A DNA stretch of 64,000 bases, taken from Hyaloraphidium curvatum. Lineage: Eukaryota > Monoblepharomycota > Hyaloraphidiomycetes > Hyaloraphidiales > Hyaloraphidiaceae. A model generated the notes under the pieces. It had not been told where the DNA came from. It saw only the letters and a program-made list of their open reading frames with translations, and made no database searches. The stretch is from positions 62,001 through 126,000 of the forward strand of contig JAIVFI010000013.1 of the NCBI GenBank assembly GCA_025558095.1. The letters are read 5' to 3'. Positions within the stretch are counted from its first letter, which is position 1. The number at the start of each line of letters is the position of its first letter. A program made the position numbers and the translations under genes. Below, in pieces: positions 2,382 to 61,152 of the stretch.

Positions 2382-4428
2382 ATGGCGGAGCCTCCCGGCC
2401 GCGCACCGACGCCCATGCAGATCAATGGCACCGCATCGACGGTCGTCAGCGTGCCGCTGACCCCCGACGGCTTGGCTCCCCATTCCCCGCCCTCCCCGCT
2501 TCTATCGCCAAACAGCGCTCTCCCCTCTCCCGCGGGCTCGGCGCCTCCGAACCAAAATGGCGCGCCTCCAGTCCCCTCCCAGCTTCCACCCCCTCTACCT
2601 CTTTCCCCCGTTTCGTCGGTCTCGCCCTTTTCCTTCGCGGCCGGCTCCGCCACGGGCACTCCAGCTCCCGCGCCAGACCTGTACCGCACCTCTACGCTAC
2701 GGCGCAGCGCGATCACCGGGACCGCGGCACTCGACCAGCTGGAGAAGGAGGACGCCGAGGACTCGGACTGGACGCGGCGGATCAAATGGCTGCGGGACCT
2801 TTACGACATTCTCGGCCTGCCTGGGCTGCTCAAGTACGACCCCAACAACCACTACAAGTTGCGGCAAGGGGAGATTGAGCGGAGGGCGCGGCACAAGGAG
2901 GAAAAGACCCGACAGCGCGAAGAGCGTCGGAAGGCCGGGGAGCGCTGCCCTTGGTGGCCATGGCCATCAAATCCGGGTGGCCAGGGCAGAGACACGCCCG
3001 AGGGCGATGCTAAAGATGCCACCCCAACAGACCCCGACGAGGAGGACATCGAGTATCAGATCGTCCTGGACCTGGCGACCTCAGGGGCCCTCGAGAACCG
3101 CGTAGGTATCGATGTCCACGCGCTTCCGGACCCCTCGGATCCCAACTACGCCGACGAGATGCGCGACGTGATCGACCGCGTCAAGCACCCCCGCCGGGTC
3201 AATATCTGCTATGCCTCGTGCTGCGGCGCCTTTCCGGTGCTTTGGCCGCAGTGGCGCCTGCGGCTGCGTCGGACGCTGAGGGACCCTCTTTACTCGTGGC
3301 TGGCAAACGTGTGGTCGCTTTTCATCGCTCTGACGATTGTCGTGTCCTTGGCCGTGCTGGTGATCGAAAGTGTGGAATCGGTCACCACCATTCCGGAGTG
3401 GCGCGAGGTCATGCAGTACACGTCGCTAGCCGTGCTAGTCACCTTCACCGCGGAACTGCTCCTGAGCTGGCTGACCATGAAGAATGTGCTCGAGTTCTTC
3501 TCGTGGAGCAACTTTGTGAACCTCGTAACCGTGATCCCGCCTGCGGTCGTCGTGGCTCTGCGCTTCGAGAGGGGCACGGACCCGACGGTCGCCAGCGTGA
3601 TGCAGAAACTTCTCGTGCTGCGGGTTTTCAAGCTCACGGACCTGGCGCAGCGGTCGCCACGCGTGTCGCTCATGTTTACTGCCATCCAGAAGTCGTGGGA
3701 CGGCATCCTCTCCCTCGTCGTCGCCGACCTGGGCCTTATGGTGTTCTTCTCCACCGTCGTTTTCTACGCCGAGACGACGGGCATGATCCTGGAGGCGGAC
3801 GGGCTCTGGTACTACAACGAGTACTACGGCGGAGGCGTTTCCCCGTTCCAGAACATTCCCGTTACCTTCTGGTTCACGGTGGGACGCCATCCTCGCGCGG
3901 TTCTTTTCCAACTGACTCCTCTCCCCGCAGATTGTAAGCATCACCACGACGGGCTACGGCGATATGGTCCCCCGCACCGTCGCCGGCAAGATCTGCACCA
4001 GCGTCATGCTCATCCTCGCGGCGGCGCTGATCGCCTTCCCGCTGGCCATCATCAACGCCAACTTCAGCGCGCTCGTGGGCGCCCAGGAAGCGGGGAAGCA
4101 GGAGCGCCGCGAGCGCAGGAGGATGCGGAGGGCCATGACGCGGCGCCCGACGGCCTCCGCGACCGCCGCGGGGAACGAGGTCAAGGCGGCCGAGATGGTG
4201 CTCATGTGGCACGTCTTCGGGGTGTCGGAAGAGCAGTGCTCGCTCAGGGTGCCGCGGGCGCTGCTCGCGAGGGTGCTGGGCACCGCCGACGTGGAAGGGA
4301 CGCTGGCAAAGAGCGGATGGCAGCTGACGCCGGAGGGGGCGCTGGCCAGACCGCGCGCCCTGGTCGGACCGGAGACCGAGTCGGTCCAGGAGGCGCTGAG
4401 GATGCTACTTATGGGCAAGGCAACATGA
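2382..4428 (+). CDS. Voltage-gated K+ channel (Kv-like, six transmembrane segments)
   Basis: One intron (3879-3930, GTGGGA...CCGCAG) joins two exons in phase 0 to give 664 residues. A Pro/Ser-rich cytosolic N-terminus of about 300 residues has a charged helix near 160-185. S1 lies at about 306-328, S2 346-366, S3 372-392, S4 408-424, S5 442-464 and S6 522-546. The selectivity filter TTTGYGD begins at about residue 504, right after the splice junction, so the intron separates pore helix from filter. By family knowledge it is a plasma-membrane K+-selective pore acting as a tetramer. S4 reads LLVLRVFKLTDLAQRS and carries only part of the usual Arg/Lys ladder, so voltage sensitivity may be weak. 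The C-terminal tail is about 120 residues. Confidence 0.9.
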
Positions 4429-4531
4429 CAACCAATTCCGTGTTCTATTCGCCGCATGTGCGCAGGTTCTGTACTAAAAGTATGGTGCTCAGATCTTGCT
4501 CTTGCTTTTGGCTGTCCGAGGTGCCGGTCCG

Positions 4532-5660
4532 TTAGTCACGGAGAAGAAGGCTGCGCGACGGGCCTTCAACCCCACCTTTGAGCTCCGCAGCCTTCTTCGC
4601 GATCTCCTTGGCGGGGATGCCGGTGATCGCGTGGCTCGCCATCTCCTCCACGCTCCGCGCGTTCCCCTGGAGCAGCGTCGGCATCGTCAGCTCGCGGATC
4701 ATCCTCTTGGCCTTGAGCACGGCGACGCGGTTGTTGCCCTGGAGGAGCGTGGCGAGGTAGTCGCCGAGCGCCTGCTGGAAGGTGGCGGCGGGCAGGATGC
4801 GGCTGACACTGGGTGAGATGAGGCTGGAGACCATTCCTTCCCGAACCTACTTGGCGAAACCGCAGGCCACCATCTCCTGCGCGGTAAGCTTCCTTCCGAA
4901 CATCTGAACGAAGACGGCGCTGATAAGCACCAGACAACGAAGCAAACCAGCATGTTCGACCCCACCAAAACCTCGCTCGCCATCCCAACGCCCATCCGGA
5001 GCGTGTACGAGACAGCGGAGCCGCCCTCGGGAATCAGTCCAAGGCTCGAAAAGGGCACATGGAGCGTCGCGTTGTCGGCGACGACGACAATGTCCGCCAG
5101 CGCCGTCTAAAAGACACCTTCTCGTCAGCCTCCGCCTCATCACGGATCCGACCGAACGCACCCATGCCGCGCTGATCCCGACAACGGGTCCATTGAGAGC
5201 AAAGACGACAGGTTTCGGGTGGCGAATCAAGAGCTTGCCGATGAGGTCGACCCTTGGAATCCACTGATTCAGACCTTCCCGTCCTGGTTCCCGACGACGA
5301 AACGACCGACCATCCGAAACCCTCGGTCTCTCCCAGCAGCTTCAAGGCATCGGTACCCTCGGTGGACCGATCCCGCTTCGACGCCTGGCCTCCGCCGTTG
5401 GTCACATCGACGCCGGCAGAAAAGAACCTGCCCTCGCCCGTGATCACGGTCAACGTGGTTTCCGGGTGCTCTGCGAGCTCATGGAGGGCCGCGATGAGTT
5501 GGTGGATCAGGGGAGGCGACAAGGAGTTGAGCTGTTTCGGCCGGTTGAGCTTGACTGTATCCGACGTTCCGGGCGTCAGAGGAGCCTGCAACTCGAGCAC
5601 TGGGGAGCACGCACTAGTCCCAATCGCGCCGTCGACCGTCAGAATGATCTCGTTGGCCAT
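4532..5660 (-). CDS. Enoyl-CoA hydratase/isomerase (Eci/Dci-like)
   Basis: Crotonase-fold protein in about five exons. MANEIILTVDG starts at 5660, followed by VKLNRPKQLNSLSPPLIHQL and ITGEGRFFSAGVDV (oxyanion-hole strand). Next come RHPKPVVFALNGPVVGISAA and LADIVVVADNATLHVPFSSL. IPEGGSA supplies the catalytic Glu position of delta3-delta2-enoyl-CoA isomerases. The final exon is QALGDYLATLL...KEIAKKAAELKGG. Introns with GTGCGT, GTTTTG and GTAGGT donors fit by phase in the 3' half. The join near 5250-5330 is uncertain and could be an intron of about 45 nt or a frameshift. The family works in beta-oxidation of unsaturated fatty acids, usually in peroxisomes, but the C-terminus (LLLRD) is not a PTS1 signal. 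Confidence 0.75.
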
Positions 5661-53768: not shown

Positions 53769-54839
53769 ATGGCACCCATGCGCTGGCACCTCCCCGCGCT
53801 CGTCGCGGCCGCGCTCGCCGTGCTCCTTGCCGCGCAGCCTGCGTGCGCGGCCCCCGCAGCGGTCAACCCGTGCTTCTACCTGCACTGCTCGACCGGCTGC
53901 TGCTCCGAGAGCGAGGGCGGCTGCGTGCCGTCCGACCGCTGCTTCATCGTTGTGCTGCCGGGCGGCGGCGCGGAGCGGCCGGCGGGCGTGCGGCCAGCGG
54001 TGCCCGCGCCGGCCGGCGGGCCGTGCGGCGCGTCGGACGCCGACCACTGCCTGACCGGGTGCTGCGTGCGCGGCGCGTGCGCGGCGCCCGACGCGTGCTT
54101 CGGTGCGCAGGCCGCGCCGGTGCGGCCCGACGGCGCCCGCTGCTTCGCGCACGCCGCGTGCGCGTCCGGCTGCTGCGACTGCTCGCTGCCGTCCGCCGCG
54201 GACGCGCCCGTCGCCGCCACGTGCGCGTGCGCGCCCCGCGAGCGCTGCTTCGGCGCGCCGGATGGCGAGCCGCTGGGCAGGCCCGCCGGCGCAAACTGCT
54301 CCGCGTCCGGCGTGCAGTGCGCCTCCAGCTGCTGCGTGGGCGGCTCGTGCGCGCCGCACGCCGCCTGCTTCGGCGCCGGCGCATCCCCGGCACCCGCCGG
54401 CCCCGGCGCAGCGTGCGCCTCGGCCGCCGGCTGCGCATCCGCATGCTGCTTCAACTCGCGCTGCTCCCCCCCCGGCCTGTGCTCCGCCGCCGGCCCCGCC
54501 TCCGCAGGCAGGCCCGGCGGCGCAGCGTGCTCCTCCTCGGGCCCCGAGTGCGCCTCGGCGTGCTGCCTCGGGGGCGCCTGCGCCGACCACGCGGCGTGCT
54601 TCGGCGCCGGCGCCGGAGCGCTGTCCTGCGTGCAGGGGGCCGCGTGCGGCTCGGGGGACGGCTGCGACTCGGGGTGCTGCATCAACGCGCGGTGCTCGCC
54701 CGGCGCCCTGTGCATGGGAGCCCCGGGCGGGCGGTGCGGGGGGGCCGCGGATTGCCCCGGGGACGGGTGGATGTGCACGGGGGGACGGTGCGTGGTGATG
54801 CCCGGCGAACCGCTGCTTCCGGCAGTCTGGCGGGGGTGA
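53769..54839 (+). CDS. Secreted cysteine-repeat protein
   Basis: Single exon, 356 residues from ATG 53769 (MAPMRWHLPALVAAALAVLL is a signal peptide). About eight repeats of 30-40 residues follow the pattern C-x-x-x-x-x-C-x-S-x-CC-x-x-x-x-C-x-x-x-x-x-C. Examples are CSTGCCSESEGGCVPSDRC, CLTGCCVRGACAAPDAC, CASSCCVGGSCAPHAACF and CASACCFNSRCSPPGLC. Each is separated by Ala/Gly/Pro. No transmembrane or GPI signal. The CC pair is a disulphide-knot hint, but I do not recognise the module. A wall or extracellular role is inferred. Close downstream of the hevein gene (270 bp), same strand. Confidence 0.7.
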   Translation: MAPMRWHLPALVAAALAVLLAAQPACAAPAAVNPCFYLHCSTGCCSESEGGCVPSDRCFIVVLPGGGAERPAGVRPAVPAPAGGPCGASDADHCLTGCCVRGACAAPDACFGAQAAPVRPDGARCFAHAACASGCCDCSLPSAADAPVAATCACAPRERCFGAPDGEPLGRPAGANCSASGVQCASSCCVGGSCAPHAACFGAGASPAPAGPGAACASAAGCASACCFNSRCSPPGLCSAAGPASAGRPGGAACSSSGPECASACCLGGACADHAACFGAGAGALSCVQGAACGSGDGCDSGCCINARCSPGALCMGAPGGRCGGAADCPGDGWMCTGGRCVVMPGEPLLPAVWRG

Positions 54840-55263
54840 GGTGGCTCCACAGCCTGCTTTTCCTCGCGGATTCCTTCCTCTCTATGAAGTGAAACTACTG
54901 GAAACTTCGACACGTTGCACGGCGCGAAGATGCGATGATTGCATTCACCGCTCCTGGTGCCCAAACCAGGCGTCGAATATAGCCTTGCTGACCGTGCTGA
55001 TGAATCTACCCACACCTCCTCCGCTTCCCCGTACGGGTCGAATGGGTTCGGTGTACTTTTCTATGCGTTTGGTGCCCAAGCAACCGCCCCGCCCGGGCAG
55101 GGGGGACTGGTGGCCTGTTGCACATCGCCGTGGACCGGACGAACTGCGTGGCCTTTTGTTCGCGCTCCGAACTTCCACCCCCCCGCAGGAGTCGAGAATT
55201 AGATGATGACCAGAATACATCAGGTAGAATTAGTGCCAAAGCCGTCGCCGTCCCCCGCACGGT
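54840..55263. other. Intergenic between convergent genes
   Basis: 3' flanks of the cysteine-repeat gene and the ligand-gated channel gene. No gene supported. Confidence 0.4.
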
Positions 55264-56515
55264 TCACCCCGCCGTCGAGCACAGCACCGCGAAGGTGATG
55301 GCGGCCACCACCACCTGCACCCCCACCGAAATGTAGTCCCACCTCCTGACCTCCCTCAGCACCGACCTCGGGTCGCCCCGGGCCCACCTCCCCTCCTTCA
55401 GGAACTTTGGCGCCGGCCCCCACAGCGCGCCCTCCTCGGAGCCCGCGTCCTCGTCGCGCGCCTCCTTGCCCACCAGGGCGTGGCGCTCGTCCTCCTCCCG
55501 GTCCAGCGCGGCGTGGAACACGGCGTTGTCCCAGAGCACCTGGAGGAAGGTGAAGGTGACGAGGACGTAGGCGGTGATGTAGAGCTCGTCCATCAGCACG
55601 AGCCCCGAGACGATGGCGGGGTCGATCGAGGTCTGCTGCAGGAAGACGCAGGTGATGAGCGCCGTCGCGCACAGGCCGATGCGGAGCTCGACGATCTTGG
55701 GGTGCACGAAGAGGGAGCTCCAGGCCACGATGAGGACAAAGATCAGGGGCACGAGCTTCCAGGCAAAGTTGCTCTGGGCGCGGGCGATGGTGACGGTGAC
55801 CAGGATCGCGGAAAAGCGCTCCGAGGAGTTGCTGCCGGGGTCGCCGAAGTTGGTGCCGTAGTCGTGCAGGTACGGCTCGATGGTCATGGAGAGCACGCTC
55901 CAGCCCGGCACGACGATGGAGCGGTCGTGGCCCGAGTTCTTGGTGTCCGGGAGGAAGATGAGCTCCGACGCGGGGAGCTCGGGGTCCTCGATGACCAGCT
56001 GTAGTTTCTGCCTGTCCATCGGGAAGGAGCGGAGGTTGAAGGCCTGGTAAAAGGTACCCTGTACTTTGAGCTCCTGGTACTGGACGCCCCCCGGATAGAC
56101 GGCAGGCTCGTCCGATAGGCGATTGACCGTCGCCCCGCCGTCGATGGCGTTCACGAACTCCAGGGTTCTCGTGGGGTCCGTGAGGTTCCCGGACCACAAC
56201 GCCCACATGTAGACGGTCATGTCGACGTCGGAGGAGGCCACATCGAGGTCGTACTATCGAGCGAGGGGGGATTCAGCGGGAGAGCCTGCCGGGGGACGGG
56301 CCACCCACGATGTTGAGCACCTGCACGCCGATGGTCACCGTCGCGGTGTTGTTCGGCACGGCGGGCAGCGGCACGAAGTCGCCCGTCGCGGCGCGCTTCG
56401 TCGGGTGAACCGGCGCGGCCCCGTGCGGATGCCGTGCTGCGGCCACCGGCGGCGCCGCGCAGAGGGCCGCGGACAGCGCCGCCAGCGCCGAGAGGCACGC
56501 TCGGTCGAAGCGCAT
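55264..56515 (-). CDS. Pentameric ligand-gated ion channel, prokaryotic (non-Cys-loop) type
   Basis: Start ATG at 56515, with signal peptide MRFDRACLSALAALSAALCA. One GTGGGT intron joins VTIGVQVLNI to YDLDVASSDVDMTVYMWALW, the canonical first beta-strands. About 395 residues. FNLRSFPMDRQKLQLVIEDP has the FPxDxQ signature of the family's Pro-loop, without the Cys pair of animal receptors. M1 is FAWKLVPLIFVLIVAWSSLF, M2 RIGLCATALITCVFLQQTSI, M3 LMDELYITAYVLVTFTFLQV and M4 DYISVGVQVVVAAITFAVLC. The M3-M4 loop is about 60 residues and charged. It should form a pentamer at the membrane with an extracellular ligand domain. Ligand and ion are unknown. Such channels are generally missing from fungi. 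Confidence 0.88.
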
Positions 56516-56686
56516 CGCGGAAGGCAGCCGCGGGTCGGTCCGCCGGCTTCCGGGTCGGGGCTTCGGTCTGGCCGGTCCGGCGCGGCTGAGCGGTTGGTGC
56601 GGGCGGTGCGGTTGATGACGCGATCGTCAGCAGATCTTGCCGGAGCTTCCGAACCTTTCACCAGCATGAAGCTACACGGTGTCAAT

Positions 56687-57478
56687 CTACCCGGTCCTCC
56701 GCTTCTTCCTCGGGGACACGGGGCCCCCGTGCCGCCGGTGGAACTCGGCCACCGCGTGCCCAGCCCCTGTCAGGTTCTCCAGCGGCTCCCAGGTGACATC
56801 GTTCCATCCCTTCCACTGGACGCGGTACTCTGCCCCGCGATCCGTGTGCCGGCACGCCGAGATCTTGCCGACCTCGTACTCGATGTCCTCCTCGAGGTCT
56901 TCCTCCTCCGTCGTCGCCCGTTCCACCTCGAGAAGCAGCCGGTCGAGGGCCTCGAAGCAGGATCCCGGCCGGCCGAGCACGTTGGTCTGGTTCGGCTTGT
57001 GCGCCATCCCCAGGGGCCCGTCCGAGTGCAGGAACCCGTGGATGCGGAAGTTGTTCTCCCCTCCCTCGTAGGCATCCCCCGCGTGGACCTGGTCGCCGCG
57101 GAACACAAGCATGTCTCCCGTCTCCAGCACCACCCGCTCCACCCTGCCCCCCGAAGGCAGCGTGAACGGCCCCTCCCCCCGCGTCGCAAGCGCCTCGTGG
57201 ACGTTGCGCCACGAGTGCGGCCACTTGCGGACCGAGGTCCTCTGCACCGCGACGAAAAACAGCAGCGGCGCATCGCGCGCCGCCGTCGTCCGCGCCATCC
57301 ACTCGCCCGACTCGGCGGAGGGAAACGCCAGATCCGTGTGCTTGGGCTGCGCCGCGCAGCCCGGCCTGCTCATCAGCACGTCGACGTTGCGCAGCTCCCT
57401 CCCCGGAAACAGCACGCCCAAGACCCCCCTTAGCACGGCATGCAGCTCCGCGAAGCCGGGCGGGCCTGGAGCCTCCTC
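56687..57478 (-). CDS. 2-oxoglutarate/Fe(II) dioxygenase fused to a C-terminal chromodomain
   Basis: One open frame holds two domains. The dioxygenase part has FAELHAVLRGVLGVLFPG, AAQPKHTDLAFPSAESGEW (HxD metal ligands), APLLFFVAVQ and LETGDMLVFRGDQVHAGDAY (distal His). ENNFRIHGFLHSDG adds an Arg for 2-oxoglutarate. After an acidic linker, DIEYEVGKISACRHTDRGAE continues as YRVQWKGWNDVTWEPLENL and HAVAEFHRRHGG, a full chromodomain with its aromatic cage residues. It ends in a basic tail (SPRKKRRTG), a possible nuclear signal. The likely role is oxidation of a chromatin-bound target (histone, DNA or RNA); this is inference. The 5' end is unresolved: no good ATG is seen in this frame, so one or more upstream exons near 57480-57710 are likely. 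Confidence 0.75.
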   Translation of the reverse strand, partial: EEAPGPPGFAELHAVLRGVLGVLFPGRELRNVDVLMSRPGCAAQPKHTDLAFPSAESGEWMARTTAARDAPLLFFVAVQRTSVRKWPHSWRNVHEALATRGEGPFTLPSGGRVERVVLETGDMLVFRGDQVHAGDAYEGGENNFRIHGFLHSDGPLGMAHKPNQTNVLGRPGSCFEALDRLLLEVERATTEEEDLEEDIEYEVGKISACRHTDRGAEYRVQWKGWNDVTWEPLENLTGAGHAVAEFHRRHGGPVSPRKKRRTG

Positions 57479-57520
57479 CCGTCGCCGGGGAGCGTCCTCG
57501 CCCCGTCGATGGCCTGGAAC

Positions 57521-57958
57521 ACGGGGGGGTACTGCAGCGGCGAACTACTACGCAATAGCGCGAGCTAGGAGGTTCGATGTTTGGTACGATCCGCGCCGCA
57601 TCATTGAAGGCTTGGGCCACTCCGGCTTTGTTGCACGTACGTCAACCTTCTCCGCGTGTGGCAAGATCCCCCCTCGCCAGCGCCTGTTCAGCACGGCCAT
57701 CATGGTTGATCGCCTTTCTTAACTGCTTTTCTCTCTGGATTCACCCGCGAACGCAAGGCATCAACATGTGAAGGCCTGCAGATCGGGGTTCACCCGCCTC
57801 GTGCCTGGCGGAGCCCTTGCGCACCGCCGGAGCTCCGAAGCTGCCCAAACAGATAGCACGATCCTGCTTCATTGACGCGCCCGGACCGCAGGCGGCGCGC
57901 GTTTCCACATTCCGGCGACATATTTCCCGCATTTTGCACGGGATCGAGCCCGCAGGCC
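57521..57958. other. Upstream region of the first adenylyl cyclase, possible 5' exons of the dioxygenase gene
   Basis: Divergent gap. Minus-strand frames around 57480-57720 may hold the missing start of the dioxygenase-chromodomain gene, but I could not find a join that works. The plus strand carries the cyclase leader. Confidence 0.3.
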
Positions 57959-59416
57959 ATGCCGGACGCGGTCGGATCGACACCCCCGCCCGTCGTCTCG
58001 CACTGGGACGGAGACGGCGGCATCGACAGCAGCGGCACCCTCTCGCCGCCTCCCACTTCTTTTCCCGCTGCACGGCGGCCCAGCGACAGGGGATCCGTCG
58101 GGTTCAACGGCCCGAACGGGAACGGTGCCAACGGCCTGAACCCCGGCTCGAAGATGGGCTCGCTGGGCCGGCGGGGCTCCCCCGCTGCCGTATCAGCAAA
58201 GGACATCGCGTATCTGCTGGAGCGCATGAACGTAGCCGAGGCCGTCGAGGACGACGGGGCGAGCAACGACGTGGCATCGTCCGTCGGATCGAGCGCGGTC
58301 GGGCGCTTCGAAACGAGCGACGAGCTGGAGCGGTTCAGGGAGTTCCAGGTGCTTTTGGACGCCTTTTGCGATGCTGCGACCGTCCCGGTGATGATCACCG
58401 ATGGCGACGGCCACGTGCGCTCCATCAATGGCGAGGCTCTGTCCCTATTTGGCTACGAGCGGCGCAACATCGTTGGGAAGAACATCGCGATCCTCATGCC
58501 GAAATCCGTGGCCGTCAAGCACGACTACTACATGCAGCGCTACCACTCGACCAAGATCAAGCACATCCTCCAAGACAAGCAGACACATCTGAAGGCAGTC
58601 AAGGCCGACGGCACCTCGATCCCCATCAGCCTTAAAGTCAACGAGCTCGCCCATCCCGGACACGGGGGCTCGTCTTTCGTGGCCTTCGTGCAGGACCTGA
58701 GCGCGCAGCTCGAGTACGAGCGCATCGAGCGGACCTTCTACTCCCTCCTCCCCCGACACATCGCCGACCGCATGCGCCGTGGGGACCAGGGCATCGCAGA
58801 ACAGACCGCGGCGTCGGTGCTCTTCATTGACTGCGTCAACTTCACGGCATTCTCCAACGCCGCGGCCCCGGCCGAAGTCATTGAGCTGTTGAGCCGTATC
58901 TTCCGGGTCGCCGACATTGCTGCGAAGCACTACGGCATCGAGAAGGTCAAAACCATAGGTGACTGTTACATGGGCGCCTGCTTCTTGATGCAGCAGGTAG
59001 GCTCGCGATCGGCGACGAAGCGCCCTGCGGGGCAGGACAACTCGTCGCACTACATGGACGCCCCCGTGAGGGCCGTGGAGATGTGCCTCGACGTCGTGCA
59101 GTACATCCAGCAGAACGAACAGATCCGGGTGCGGGTCGGGATCGCGACGGGGCCGGTCGTGGCCGGATGCATGGAGGGCGACCGGCCGACCTACGATCTC
59201 CTGGGGCCGACGGTCAACCTAGCGTCGAGGCTGCAGAACGTGGCACCGGCTAACGGTATTGCTGTGGACTCAGCGACGGCGGAGCAGTGCTCGCACGTCT
59301 TCCAATGGGCCGCCCCTGTGCAGCACGACCTCAAGGGCTGCGGCGACGTGGACGTCTTTATCCTGGAGGGAAGAAAGCAGCATTCGGGTACCATGGGAAG
59401 GAATCACTCTCTGTAA
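57959..59416 (+). CDS. PAS-domain adenylyl cyclase, copy 1
   Basis: Single exon, 485 residues from ATG 57959. A Ser/Gly/Asn-rich leader of about 115 residues is followed by a PAS domain at about 133-250: VPVMITDGDGHVRSINGEAL, LFGYERRNIVGKNIAILMPK, VKADGTSIPISLKVNELAHP. A signalling helix (LEYERIERTFYSLLPRHIAD) leads into a class III cyclase domain. SVLFIDCVNFTAF and VKTIGDCYMGA hold the two metal-binding Asp. TYDLLGPTVNLASRL gives the Asn and Arg of catalysis. Purine-selecting residues are Lys (KTIGD) and Asp (TYDLL), the adenylyl-cyclase pair. No transmembrane segment, so soluble; it makes cAMP, probably regulated by the PAS sensor. Duplicated next door. Confidence 0.88.
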   Translation: MPDAVGSTPPPVVSHWDGDGGIDSSGTLSPPPTSFPAARRPSDRGSVGFNGPNGNGANGLNPGSKMGSLGRRGSPAAVSAKDIAYLLERMNVAEAVEDDGASNDVASSVGSSAVGRFETSDELERFREFQVLLDAFCDAATVPVMITDGDGHVRSINGEALSLFGYERRNIVGKNIAILMPKSVAVKHDYYMQRYHSTKIKHILQDKQTHLKAVKADGTSIPISLKVNELAHPGHGGSSFVAFVQDLSAQLEYERIERTFYSLLPRHIADRMRRGDQGIAEQTAASVLFIDCVNFTAFSNAAAPAEVIELLSRIFRVADIAAKHYGIEKVKTIGDCYMGACFLMQQVGSRSATKRPAGQDNSSHYMDAPVRAVEMCLDVVQYIQQNEQIRVRVGIATGPVVAGCMEGDRPTYDLLGPTVNLASRLQNVAPANGIAVDSATAEQCSHVFQWAAPVQHDLKGCGDVDVFILEGRKQHSGTMGRNHSL

Positions 59417-59685: not shown

Positions 59686-61152
59686 ATGGGGGACACGCCC
59701 GGTTCCCCCTTTCTGTCGACCGGCGGGCTCTTCGACGGCGACGGCAAAACCAGCAGCGGCACACTGACGCCGGGCCCGGCATCGGAGCCCGGAGGGAGGA
59801 GGCCCAGCGACAGGGCCCCCCTGGGGTTCAACGGCACCAACGGGCCGGTCGGGCCGGCCGGCCAGGCCGCCAACGGAGCGGTGCCCATGTCCGGCACGAA
59901 AATGGGCTCCCAAGGCCGGTCCGGCGCGCCGCCGGCCGTGTCGGCCAAGGACATCGCGTACCTGCTCGAACGCCTGAACGCCCAGGACGGGGGCGACGAC
60001 GACATGGTCTCCTCCGTGGCAGGGTCGAGCGGCCTCGGCCACTTTGAAAGCAACGACGAGCTGGCGCGCTTCAAGGAGTTCCAGGTGCTACTGGACGCCT
60101 TCTGCGACGCTGCGACCGTGCCGGTGATGATCACGGACGGCGAAGGACACGTCCGCTCCATCAACCACGAGGCCCTTTCTCTGTTTGGCTACGAGCGCCG
60201 CAACATCGTCGGCAAGAACATCAACATGCTGATGCCCAAGTCGCTGGCCGTCAAGCACGACTACTACATGCAGCGCTATCACTCGACCAAAATCAAGCAC
60301 ATCATGATGGATAAACAGACCCATCTGAAGGCAGTCAAGGCCGACGGCACCACCTTTCCCATCAGTCTCAAGATTAATGAGCTGGCCCATCCCGGCGGCA
60401 CCGGCTCCTCGTTCGTGGGCTTCGTCCAGGATCTGACGGCGCAGCTCGAGTACGAGCGCATCGAGCGGACCTTCTATTCCCTCCTGCCCCGCCATATCGC
60501 CGACCGCATGCGTCGTGGCGACCAGAGCATTGCCGAGCAGACCGCAGCCTCAGTGCTCTTCATCGATTGTGTCGACTTTACCGCCTTCGCCAACTCAACC
60601 CCCGCCTCGGAGGTGATTGAGCTCCTCACCCGTGTGTTCCGCGCGGCCGACATTGCCGCCAAGCACTACGGCATCGAGAAGGTCAAGACCATAGGTGACT
60701 GTTACATGGGCGCCTGCTTCCTCCTTCAGCAGGCCGGTTCCCGGTCCGGAGCCAAGCGCCCTGCGGGACAGGACTCGTCCCACTTCATGGATGCTCCCGT
60801 GCGGGCGGTCGAGATGTGCCTGGACGTGTTGCAGTACATCCAGCAGAACGAGGAGGTGCGCGTGAGGGTGGGGATCGCCACGGGCGCCGTGGTTGCAGGC
60901 TGCATGGAAGGCGACCGTCCCACCTACGATCTCCTGGGGCCGACGGTCAACCTGGCCTCCCGGCTGCAGCACATGGCGCCCATCAACGGAATCGCCGTCG
61001 ATACGGCGACGGCGGAGCAGTGCTCGCACGTGTTCCAGTGGGCAAGCCCGGTGCGGCACGACATCAAGGGCTGCGGCGATGTTGATGTTTTCGTACTTGA
61101 GGGCAGGAAGCAGAGTTCGGGGGCCAAGGGAAGGGCCAGCAGTTTGGCCTAA
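59686..61152 (+). CDS. PAS-domain adenylyl cyclase, copy 2
   Basis: Single exon, 488 residues from ATG 59686, in tandem with copy 1 (269 bp after its stop). PAS and cyclase regions are almost identical to copy 1 (for example MITDGEGHVRSINHEALSLF, EKVKTIGDCYMGACFLLQQA, TYDLLGPTVNLASRLQ). The leader and the stretch before PAS differ (Gly/Pro/Ala-rich). Both metal Asp residues, the Lys/Asp purine pair and the Asn-Arg transition-state pair are present. Soluble cAMP producer by inference. The duplication looks recent because nucleotide similarity extends through the coding region but not into the spacer. Confidence 0.88.
   Translation: MGDTPGSPFLSTGGLFDGDGKTSSGTLTPGPASEPGGRRPSDRAPLGFNGTNGPVGPAGQAANGAVPMSGTKMGSQGRSGAPPAVSAKDIAYLLERLNAQDGGDDDMVSSVAGSSGLGHFESNDELARFKEFQVLLDAFCDAATVPVMITDGEGHVRSINHEALSLFGYERRNIVGKNINMLMPKSLAVKHDYYMQRYHSTKIKHIMMDKQTHLKAVKADGTTFPISLKINELAHPGGTGSSFVGFVQDLTAQLEYERIERTFYSLLPRHIADRMRRGDQSIAEQTAASVLFIDCVDFTAFANSTPASEVIELLTRVFRAADIAAKHYGIEKVKTIGDCYMGACFLLQQAGSRSGAKRPAGQDSSHFMDAPVRAVEMCLDVLQYIQQNEEVRVRVGIATGAVVAGCMEGDRPTYDLLGPTVNLASRLQHMAPINGIAVDTATAEQCSHVFQWASPVRHDIKGCGDVDVFVLEGRKQSSGAKGRASSLA

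What the first reader, a model, noticed from the sequence alone, without database searches (positions are those of the whole stretch)
56687..57478. Dioxygenase-chromodomain fusion
One uninterrupted frame carries an HxD...H...R 2-oxoglutarate oxygenase and a complete chromodomain, then a basic tail. I know of no standard fungal protein with this pairing. It suggests an oxygenase delivered to methylated histones, with histone, DNA or RNA base as a substrate. It is not a retroelement integrase chromodomain because no integrase sequence is nearby.
Basis: partly seen in the sequence, partly recalled or inferred. Interest (0 to 1): 0.78.

Follow-up and report, generated by a model that had tools for sequence, protein, structure and literature searches.

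The report
Oxygenase fused to a chromatin reader
A microbial eukaryote carries a gene that joins an iron-dependent oxygenase domain to a domain that usually binds methylated histones, an unusual pairing that looks real, although the front end of the gene looks incomplete or frameshifted.

Summary
On the minus strand, window 56687-57544 is one open frame. It encodes a divergent PhyH-like 2-oxoglutarate oxygenase core (HTD...H...R), an acidic linker, a complete chromodomain (Pfam E 3.7e-9, aromatic cage Y-W-W) and a basic NLS-like tail. Codon-usage signal runs unbroken across both domains. The oxygenase matches no Pfam family; profile comparison with 16 PhyH proteins of the same genome gives 85% probability, with HxD and the distal His in register. 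Of 17 gypsy-type queries, 16 match the window, at the chromodomain. Against it: at about 57465 the gene is frameshifted relative to the paralog, and no counterpart of the paralog's first ~120 residues was found upstream: assembly error, unresolved exons or pseudogene decay. No usable fold was obtained. Most likely mechanism: an oxygenase tethered to methyl-lysine chromatin, substrate unknown. The genome also has a SUV39-like methyltransferase, DNA-methylase matches and a 5-hmdU-DNA-kinase-like protein that ends in a chromodomain, so a chromatin-targeted DNA-base modification is testable but unproven.

The parts
56687..57457 (-). Reading frame of the fusion with continuous coding signature (residues 30-285 of the 285-codon open frame 56687-57544)
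56924..57457 (-). Divergent PhyH-like 2-oxoglutarate oxygenase core (residues 30-207); H69, D71, H154, R167
   Evidence: 50% identity to paralog L002; motifs also kept in third relative L041; hhalign probability 85.4% to a PhyH profile, 0 of 60 column shuffles reach its score
56882..56923 (-). Acidic linker (residues 208-221, ATTEEEDLEED region), beginning where the paralog's homology ends
   Evidence: alignments
56732..56881 (-). Complete chromodomain (about residues 222-271); aromatic cage positions Y223, W244, W247
   Evidence: Pfam PF00385 E 3.7e-9; genome search 40.3 bits; PDB chromodomain matches
56690..56731 (-). Basic tail with PRKKRR, NLS-like by inspection (residues 272-285)
   Evidence: translation; the NLS reading is recalled knowledge
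57461..57541 (-). Segment homologous to the paralog (YPPVFQAIDGARTLPGDGRRLQ) but in another frame: frameshift of the gene at about 57465

Best explanation
A PhyH-like 2-oxoglutarate/Fe(II) oxygenase gene was duplicated in this lineage. One copy (this one) gained a chromodomain and a basic NLS-like tail at its C-terminus, which produced a nuclear oxygenase tethered to methyl-lysine chromatin (most likely H3K9me), where it hydroxylates a chromatin component. Shown by computation: the in-frame fusion, the coding signature across the junction, purifying selection on the oxygenase part, the catalytic motif, the complete chromodomain with its cage, and a chromodomain-free paralog. Inferred: nuclear location, H3K9me binding, activity and substrate. 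The 5' end is unresolved; I favour a gene with undetected 5' exons plus an indel (in the assembly or recent) near 57465.
For: Chromodomain PF00385 E 3.7e-9, positions 1-53 of 53. Paralog L002 is 50% identical over residues 27-207 and stops without a chromodomain. HxD/H/R are conserved in 3 of 3 family members found. The PhyH profile match gives probability 85.4 and score 43.0, against a maximum of 20.4 in 60 column shuffles and 13.2 reversed. Coding log-likelihood is positive in both domains, in the same frame. Selection: observed amino-acid identity is 0.497, whereas 0 of 2000 neutral replicates at the same DNA divergence reach it and 5.6% stay free of stops (simple substitution model with the paralog as starting point). 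H3K9-type machinery is present: chromodomain in L046 next to pre-SET/SET. Other proteins of this genome with nuclear-type domains also carry chromodomains.
Against: There is a frameshift relative to the paralog at about 57465, and no N-terminal counterpart was found. The oxygenase matches no Pfam or NCBIfam family on its own. With the window sequence alone the PhyH probability is 37.4, with the paralog alone 28.0, with the two together 59.2. Both AlphaFold runs on single sequences had mean pLDDT below 40. The first in-frame ATG would remove part of the core. A two-residue insertion separates H154 from R167 relative to the paralog. No relatives were found in viral or prokaryotic genomes by pattern-limited scans, and other eukaryotes could not be searched, so conservation of the fusion across species is untested. 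There are no transcript data.
Confidence: 0.45

Rival explanations
1. Recently decayed gene: the fusion was a real, selected gene, but the 5' part has been lost and a frameshift has arisen, so it is now a pseudogene or makes a truncated protein.
For: Frameshift at about 57465 and no N-terminal homology in the ~420 bases up to the divergent cyclase gene; no clear coding signal upstream of about 57545.
Against: The rest of the frame (256 codons) has no stop and keeps a strong coding signature through the second domain; all catalytic and cage residues are retained. A one-base assembly indel in a GC-rich run would give the same picture.
Confidence: 0.3
2. The chromodomain was captured from a gypsy-type (chromovirus) integrase and added to the oxygenase. 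This is an origin story that can be true alongside the best explanation.
For: 39% identity over residues 215-282 to the genome's gypsy copies. The HAVAEFHRRHGG / DAVADFHRRFPD ends are similar, and gypsyA has the top BLOSUM score to ours (97, tied with the HMUDK chromodomain). The tree puts ours beside the four gypsy chromodomains (81/77, below the starred threshold). Our chromodomain is intronless, whereas four cellular ones here look interrupted by introns.
Against: The tree of 11 short rows has no starred branch (0 of 8). The loop before TWEP is two residues shorter than in gypsy and equals that of the HMUDK and TFIIS_M chromodomains. No other piece of a gypsy element matches the window above chance.
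Confidence: 0.35
3. The enzyme modifies a DNA base (thymine or 5-methylcytosine oxidation) at silenced chromatin, in one pathway with the genome's 5-hmdU-DNA-kinase-like chromodomain protein.
For: One HMUDK_hel locus in the genome (E 4.4e-8; E 1.3e-9 on its exon); its gene ends in a short-loop chromodomain whose BLOSUM score to ours is the joint highest. Ten PF00145 DNA-methylase matches, some of them exons of one gene. No TET/JBP match, so the oxidation step is vacant.
Against: The tree does not join the two chromodomains: the HMUDK one falls with CHD1b and L024 (82/82). PhyH-like enzymes mostly act on small molecules (recalled). The two genes are on different contigs (C13, C25). The genome has 68 PhyH matches, so many oxygenases could fill the role. 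There is no substrate evidence.
Confidence: 0.07
4. Not a 2OG oxygenase: another beta fold with a chance HxD...H...R.
For: No Pfam 2OG match; the weak Pfam hints are Cupin_6 and JmjC_2, below their cut-offs.
Against: The motif is conserved in three divergent members. PhyH profile match with both metal motifs in register. The best of three sub-significant PDB profile hits is a 2OG-Fe(II) oxygenase at the distal-His motif (E 0.24; the other two are GFP-like). Cupin, JmjC and 2OG folds share the double-stranded beta-helix (recalled).
Confidence: 0.08

Closest known systems
PhyH (phytanoyl-CoA dioxygenase-like) family, PF05721
   Same: HxD and distal His align in register in profile-profile comparison; a C-terminal Arg follows.
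   Different: Not recognised by the PhyH Pfam model; the usual PGSH-type motif reads WP[YH]SW. Known members are recalled as having no chromodomain; this was not searched.
Histone/DNA oxygenases with reader domains (JmjC with PHD or Tudor, TET with CXXC; recalled)
   Same: General design: a 2OG oxygenase brought to chromatin by a reader domain.
   Different: Different oxygenase family and different reader; no TET/JBP match in this genome.
HMUDK_hel + chromodomain protein of the same genome (L044, contig C25)
   Same: Candidate nucleic-acid enzyme with a C-terminal chromodomain whose loop before TWEP has the same short length.
   Different: Kinase-type helical domain (PF18723), not an oxygenase; its chromodomain is interrupted by a predicted 56-base intron, and the tree does not join it to ours.
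Paralog on contig C6 (L002, 373-aa open frame)
   Same: 50% identical oxygenase core with the same motifs.
   Different: Has a ~120-residue N-terminus that ours lacks, and no chromodomain.

Membership tests
2OG-Fe(II) oxygenase superfamily | HxD...H metal triad and downstream 2OG-binding Arg | tested here: met
   H69-T-D71, H154, R167; conserved in 3 of 3 family members
2OG-Fe(II) oxygenase superfamily | Double-stranded beta-helix fold | tested here: inconclusive
   AlphaFold single-sequence models unusable, mean pLDDT 36.1 and 38.9; profile comparison supports it
2OG-Fe(II) oxygenase superfamily | Fe(II)/2OG-dependent activity | not testable with these tools
   needs an enzyme assay
PhyH PF05721 | Score above the Pfam gathering cut-off | tested here: not met
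   no PhyH hit for the protein or its two relatives; so filed only as PhyH-like
Chromodomain PF00385 | Score above the Pfam gathering cut-off over the full model | tested here: met
   36.8 bits against 25.1, positions 1-53 of 53
Chromodomain PF00385 (methyl-lysine reader) | Three aromatic cage residues | tested here: met
   Y223, W244, W247 align with Y, W, Y of the CDY-type chains shown (that these are the cage positions is recalled)
Chromodomain PF00385 (methyl-lysine reader) | Binds methylated histone peptide | not testable with these tools
   needs a binding assay
Chromovirus (Ty3/gypsy) integrase | Integrase sequence upstream of the chromodomain | tested here: not met
   tblastn of 17 chromodomain-bearing gypsy frames of this genome against the window: 16 of 17 match, all at the chromodomain; the only other hit has E 0.95
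TET/JBP oxygenase PF12851 | Match to the Tet_JBP model | tested here: not met
   0 matches at E 0.5 in the whole genome, which includes this gene

The most novel reading that the evidence does not exclude
This organism carries a chromatin-targeted DNA-base modification pathway. A PhyH-like oxygenase hydroxylates thymine (or 5-methylcytosine) at H3K9-methylated chromatin, and a 5-hmdU-DNA-kinase-like enzyme acts on the product; both are recruited by C-terminal chromodomains with the same short loop. It would be a eukaryotic counterpart of phage thymine hypermodification, guided by histone marks.
Probability: 0.07. Interest if true: 0.92.

Novelty: new variant of a known kind. Interest (0 to 1): 0.47.

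Why it matters
If the gene is intact and expressed, it is an oxygenase of a type that I do not know as a chromatin enzyme, placed on chromatin by its own reader domain. That would widen the set of enzymes able to edit histones, DNA or RNA in heterochromatin. Together with the 5-hmdU-kinase-like chromodomain protein of the same genome, it turns an open question, whether eukaryotes outside kinetoplastids hypermodify DNA bases in a chromatin-guided way, into a direct mass-spectrometry test. If it is a pseudogene, it still records a domain fusion whose oxygenase part was under selection until recently.

Tried and rejected
Led nowhere: three related-loci scans and one pattern search of viral contigs (39) and one scan of prokaryotic genomes found no relative of the oxygenase (26, 50, 19 and 59 stretches matched a pattern; none was confirmed; these scans see only sequences that match short peptide patterns). 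tblastn in phages and plasmids gave only chance matches, and a PDB search with the paralog alone gave nothing below E 0.49. Pfam, PHROGs and NCBIfam gave no oxygenase family. Single-sequence AlphaFold on the whole frame and on the core gave unusable models, so no fold search was run on them. The chromodomain tree has no starred branch (0 of 8), so its origin stays open. Two searches for ribosomal RNA in the own genome returned no answer, so the organism was not identified. A repeat search of 54800-58000 showed only one 29-base pair of weakly similar copies and no terminal-repeat-like pair.

Considered: an intron that would repair the frame near 57465. A 57-base GT...AG stretch is there but, being a multiple of three, would not change the frame. 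The same donor with an AG seven bases earlier (50 bases, counted by hand) would restore the frame and lies within the 47-63 bases of the five predicted introns measured. I hold it unlikely because it would remove the stretch that is homologous to coding sequence of the paralog and has no pyrimidine-rich end, but it is not excluded. Rejected: the open frame by itself as evidence, since longer overlapping frames exist there (406 and 319 codons). The paper searches listed no description of such a fusion: listings only (the library lacks most subscription journals). PMC13297926 and PMC12730594 were seen as found passages.

In one search the row labelled 'frame0' was translated in the wrong frame and I do not use it; the other-frame evidence is. 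One search ended in an index error after the profile was printed, and its training set included the paralog; one search repeats the scores without the paralog. In one search the row for the chromodomain was cut out of frame and is not used. Of 20 PhyH loci fetched, 16 entered the profile; L050 and L066 fell to a motif filter, L057 holds a stop, L059 duplicates L058.

Full report
What is there. The window is G000:C13:62001-126000 of a 31.9 Mb, 55-contig genome with GC of about 62-73% in 2-kb steps across the window. The reported gene lies on the minus strand. Its frame is open from 57544 to the stop at 56687-56689, 285 codons. Residues 222-270 match the Pfam chromodomain over its whole length (36.8 bits, cut-off 25.1, E 3.7e-9) and match chromodomain chains in the PDB (best E 2.1e-5). 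Y223, W244 and W247 fall on the aromatic cage columns (cage positions recalled). The tail ends PRKKRRTG.

The oxygenase part. No Pfam 2OG family matches it; Cupin_6 and JmjC_2 appear only below their cut-offs. A paralog on contig C6 is 50% identical over residues 27-207, and a distant third member on C21 (L041) is 32% identical to the paralog over 95 residues. All three keep HxD, the distal His and an Arg 11-13 residues later. I compared a three-sequence profile of this family with a profile of 16 PhyH matches from the same genome: hhalign probability 85.4, score 43.0, with HxD and the distal His in register. None of 60 column-shuffled versions came near (maximum score 20.4), and the reversed profile scored 13.2. 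With the window sequence alone the probability is only 37.4, with the paralog alone 28.0, with these two 59.2, so the family profile carries the evidence. A profile search of the PDB gave three sub-significant hits: a 2OG-Fe(II) oxygenase at the distal-His motif (E 0.24), and two GFP-like proteins. I therefore call it a divergent PhyH-like oxygenase, not a PhyH member.

Is the frame really one gene? A 30-codon log-likelihood profile favours this frame at every step from centre 57435 to centre 56745, across the junction, with values of 3 to 22 (for shuffled sequence the 95% point is 1, the 99% point 4 and the maximum of 1000 is 12). With the paralog left out of training, the oxygenase part scores 63.8 bits and the chromodomain plus tail 30.0 bits, both with GC3 0.91. 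Between paralog and window gene (179 aligned codons) amino-acid identity is 0.497 at 0.371 DNA divergence. In 2000 neutral replicates at that divergence the mean identity was 0.345, none reached 0.497, and 5.6% had no stop (a simple substitution model that starts from the paralog). The changes by codon position are 73, 57 and 69, so there is no clear third-position excess; third positions are held near 90% GC. The oxygenase part has thus been under selection for protein sequence. The paralog's homology stops at the start of the acidic linker and its own stop codon follows soon after, so the chromodomain sits behind a complete catalytic core.

The problem at the 5' end. The stretch 57461-57541 is homologous to the paralog in a different frame (score 59, maximum of 500 shuffles 38), and the codon profile switches frame there (+9 at centre 57495). 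In the DNA alignment the stretch from 57543 to 57461 is a net 22 bases shorter than in the paralog, which does not keep the frame. Upstream to 57958, where the divergent cyclase begins, similarity to the paralog's N-terminus is at chance level (29; 364 of 500 shuffles equal or exceed it), and no step above 0 appears. Five predicted introns in other chromodomain genes measure 47-63 bases; no intron of that size repairs the frame here without removing part of the conserved stretch. An assembly indel, a recent mutation and unresolved exons remain possible. This is the main reason my confidence stays below one half.

Origin of the chromodomain. The genome has 33 chromodomain matches at E 0.01 or better, a lower bound that counts some split domains twice. 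Among the 10 other stretches compared, ours scores equally high with the gypsyA chromodomain and with that of the HMUDK protein (97 each), then CDCA7 (88.5). The tree puts ours beside the four gypsy chromodomains (81/77) and CDCA7 next to that group (94/97), and HMUDK elsewhere (82/82), but no branch is starred (0 of 8). The short loop before TWEP is shared with the HMUDK and TFIIS_M chromodomains, while the C-terminal end resembles gypsy. Of 17 gypsy frames searched against the window, 16 match, at the chromodomain, and the only other hit has E 0.95. The origin is open, with a lean to gypsy.

Chromatin setting. The same genome encodes a chromodomain (L046) next to pre-SET and SET matches (E 8.5e-17 and 2.1e-22), which resembles a SUV39/Clr4 H3K9 methyltransferase (recalled). 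It has ten matches to the DNA-methylase family PF00145 and none to Tet_JBP. One locus matches the 5-hmdU DNA kinase helical domain (PF18723), and its gene ends in a chromodomain (E 2.6e-12 on two joined exons). A zf-4CXXC_R1 exon (L047) and a TFIIS_M exon (L042) are followed by chromodomain exons. Attaching chromodomains to such proteins thus looks like a habit of this genome.

How it most likely works. The chromodomain reads methyl-lysine on histones, probably H3K9me, and keeps the oxygenase on that chromatin, where it hydroxylates a nearby substrate using 2OG and Fe(II). The substrate could be a histone, a chromatin protein, DNA or RNA; the data do not decide. The DNA-base reading is the boldest that the evidence allows, because a putative next enzyme of such a pathway also carries a chromodomain and no TET/JBP match is present. 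I give it 7%.

What is known. In the searches listed under Tried and rejected no paper in the listings describes this pairing; passages of two papers were seen. Fungal TET/JBP oxygenases encoded by DNA transposons are known (PMC12730594, title and one passage), but that paper's main text does not mention a chromodomain (0 occurrences). The pairing is best rated a new variant of a known kind: an oxygenase with a chromatin reader.

Noticed in passing
L044 about 3000-4750 (G000:C25:438000-447900): Spliced gene with a 5-hmdU DNA kinase helical domain (PF18723, E 1.3e-9) and a C-terminal chromodomain (E 2.6e-12); the only PF18723 match reported in the genome.
   Followed up: partly
L047 3413-4646, minus (G000:C15:267000-274000): zf-4CXXC_R1 (CDCA7-like, name recalled) exon followed by chromodomain exons, apparently one gene.
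   Followed up: partly
L042 about 4298-5524, minus (G000:C6:699000-708900): TFIIS_M domain and a basic region followed by a short-loop chromodomain across a predicted intron; the locus lies about 15 kb from the oxygenase paralog on C6.
   Followed up: partly
L041 985-1914 (G000:C21): Third, distant member of the oxygenase family, with HAD, H and R motifs; no chromodomain match on C21.
   Followed up: partly
genome-wide: 68 PhyH matches at E 0.1, some of them pieces of one gene; this seems a large family for a 32 Mb genome.
   Followed up: no
G000:C6:573736, 576409, 579082: Three equal-scoring chromodomain fragments resembling the gypsyD type, each with one internal stop, spaced exactly 2673 bases: a tandem array of an element piece.
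   Followed up: no
G000:C40:80236, 85427, 90618: Three equal-scoring Zn2Cys6 matches spaced exactly 5191 bases, suggesting a tandem triplication.
   Followed up: no
window 57959-59413 and 59686-61149, plus: Two tandem PAS plus adenylate/guanylate cyclase genes, the first divergent from the oxygenase gene.
   Followed up: partly
window 55267-56253, minus: Membrane protein that looks like a pentameric ligand-gated channel by eye; no Pfam match at E 0.001.
   Followed up: partly
window 53775-54836, plus: Open frame rich in cysteines; no Pfam match at E 0.001.
   Followed up: no
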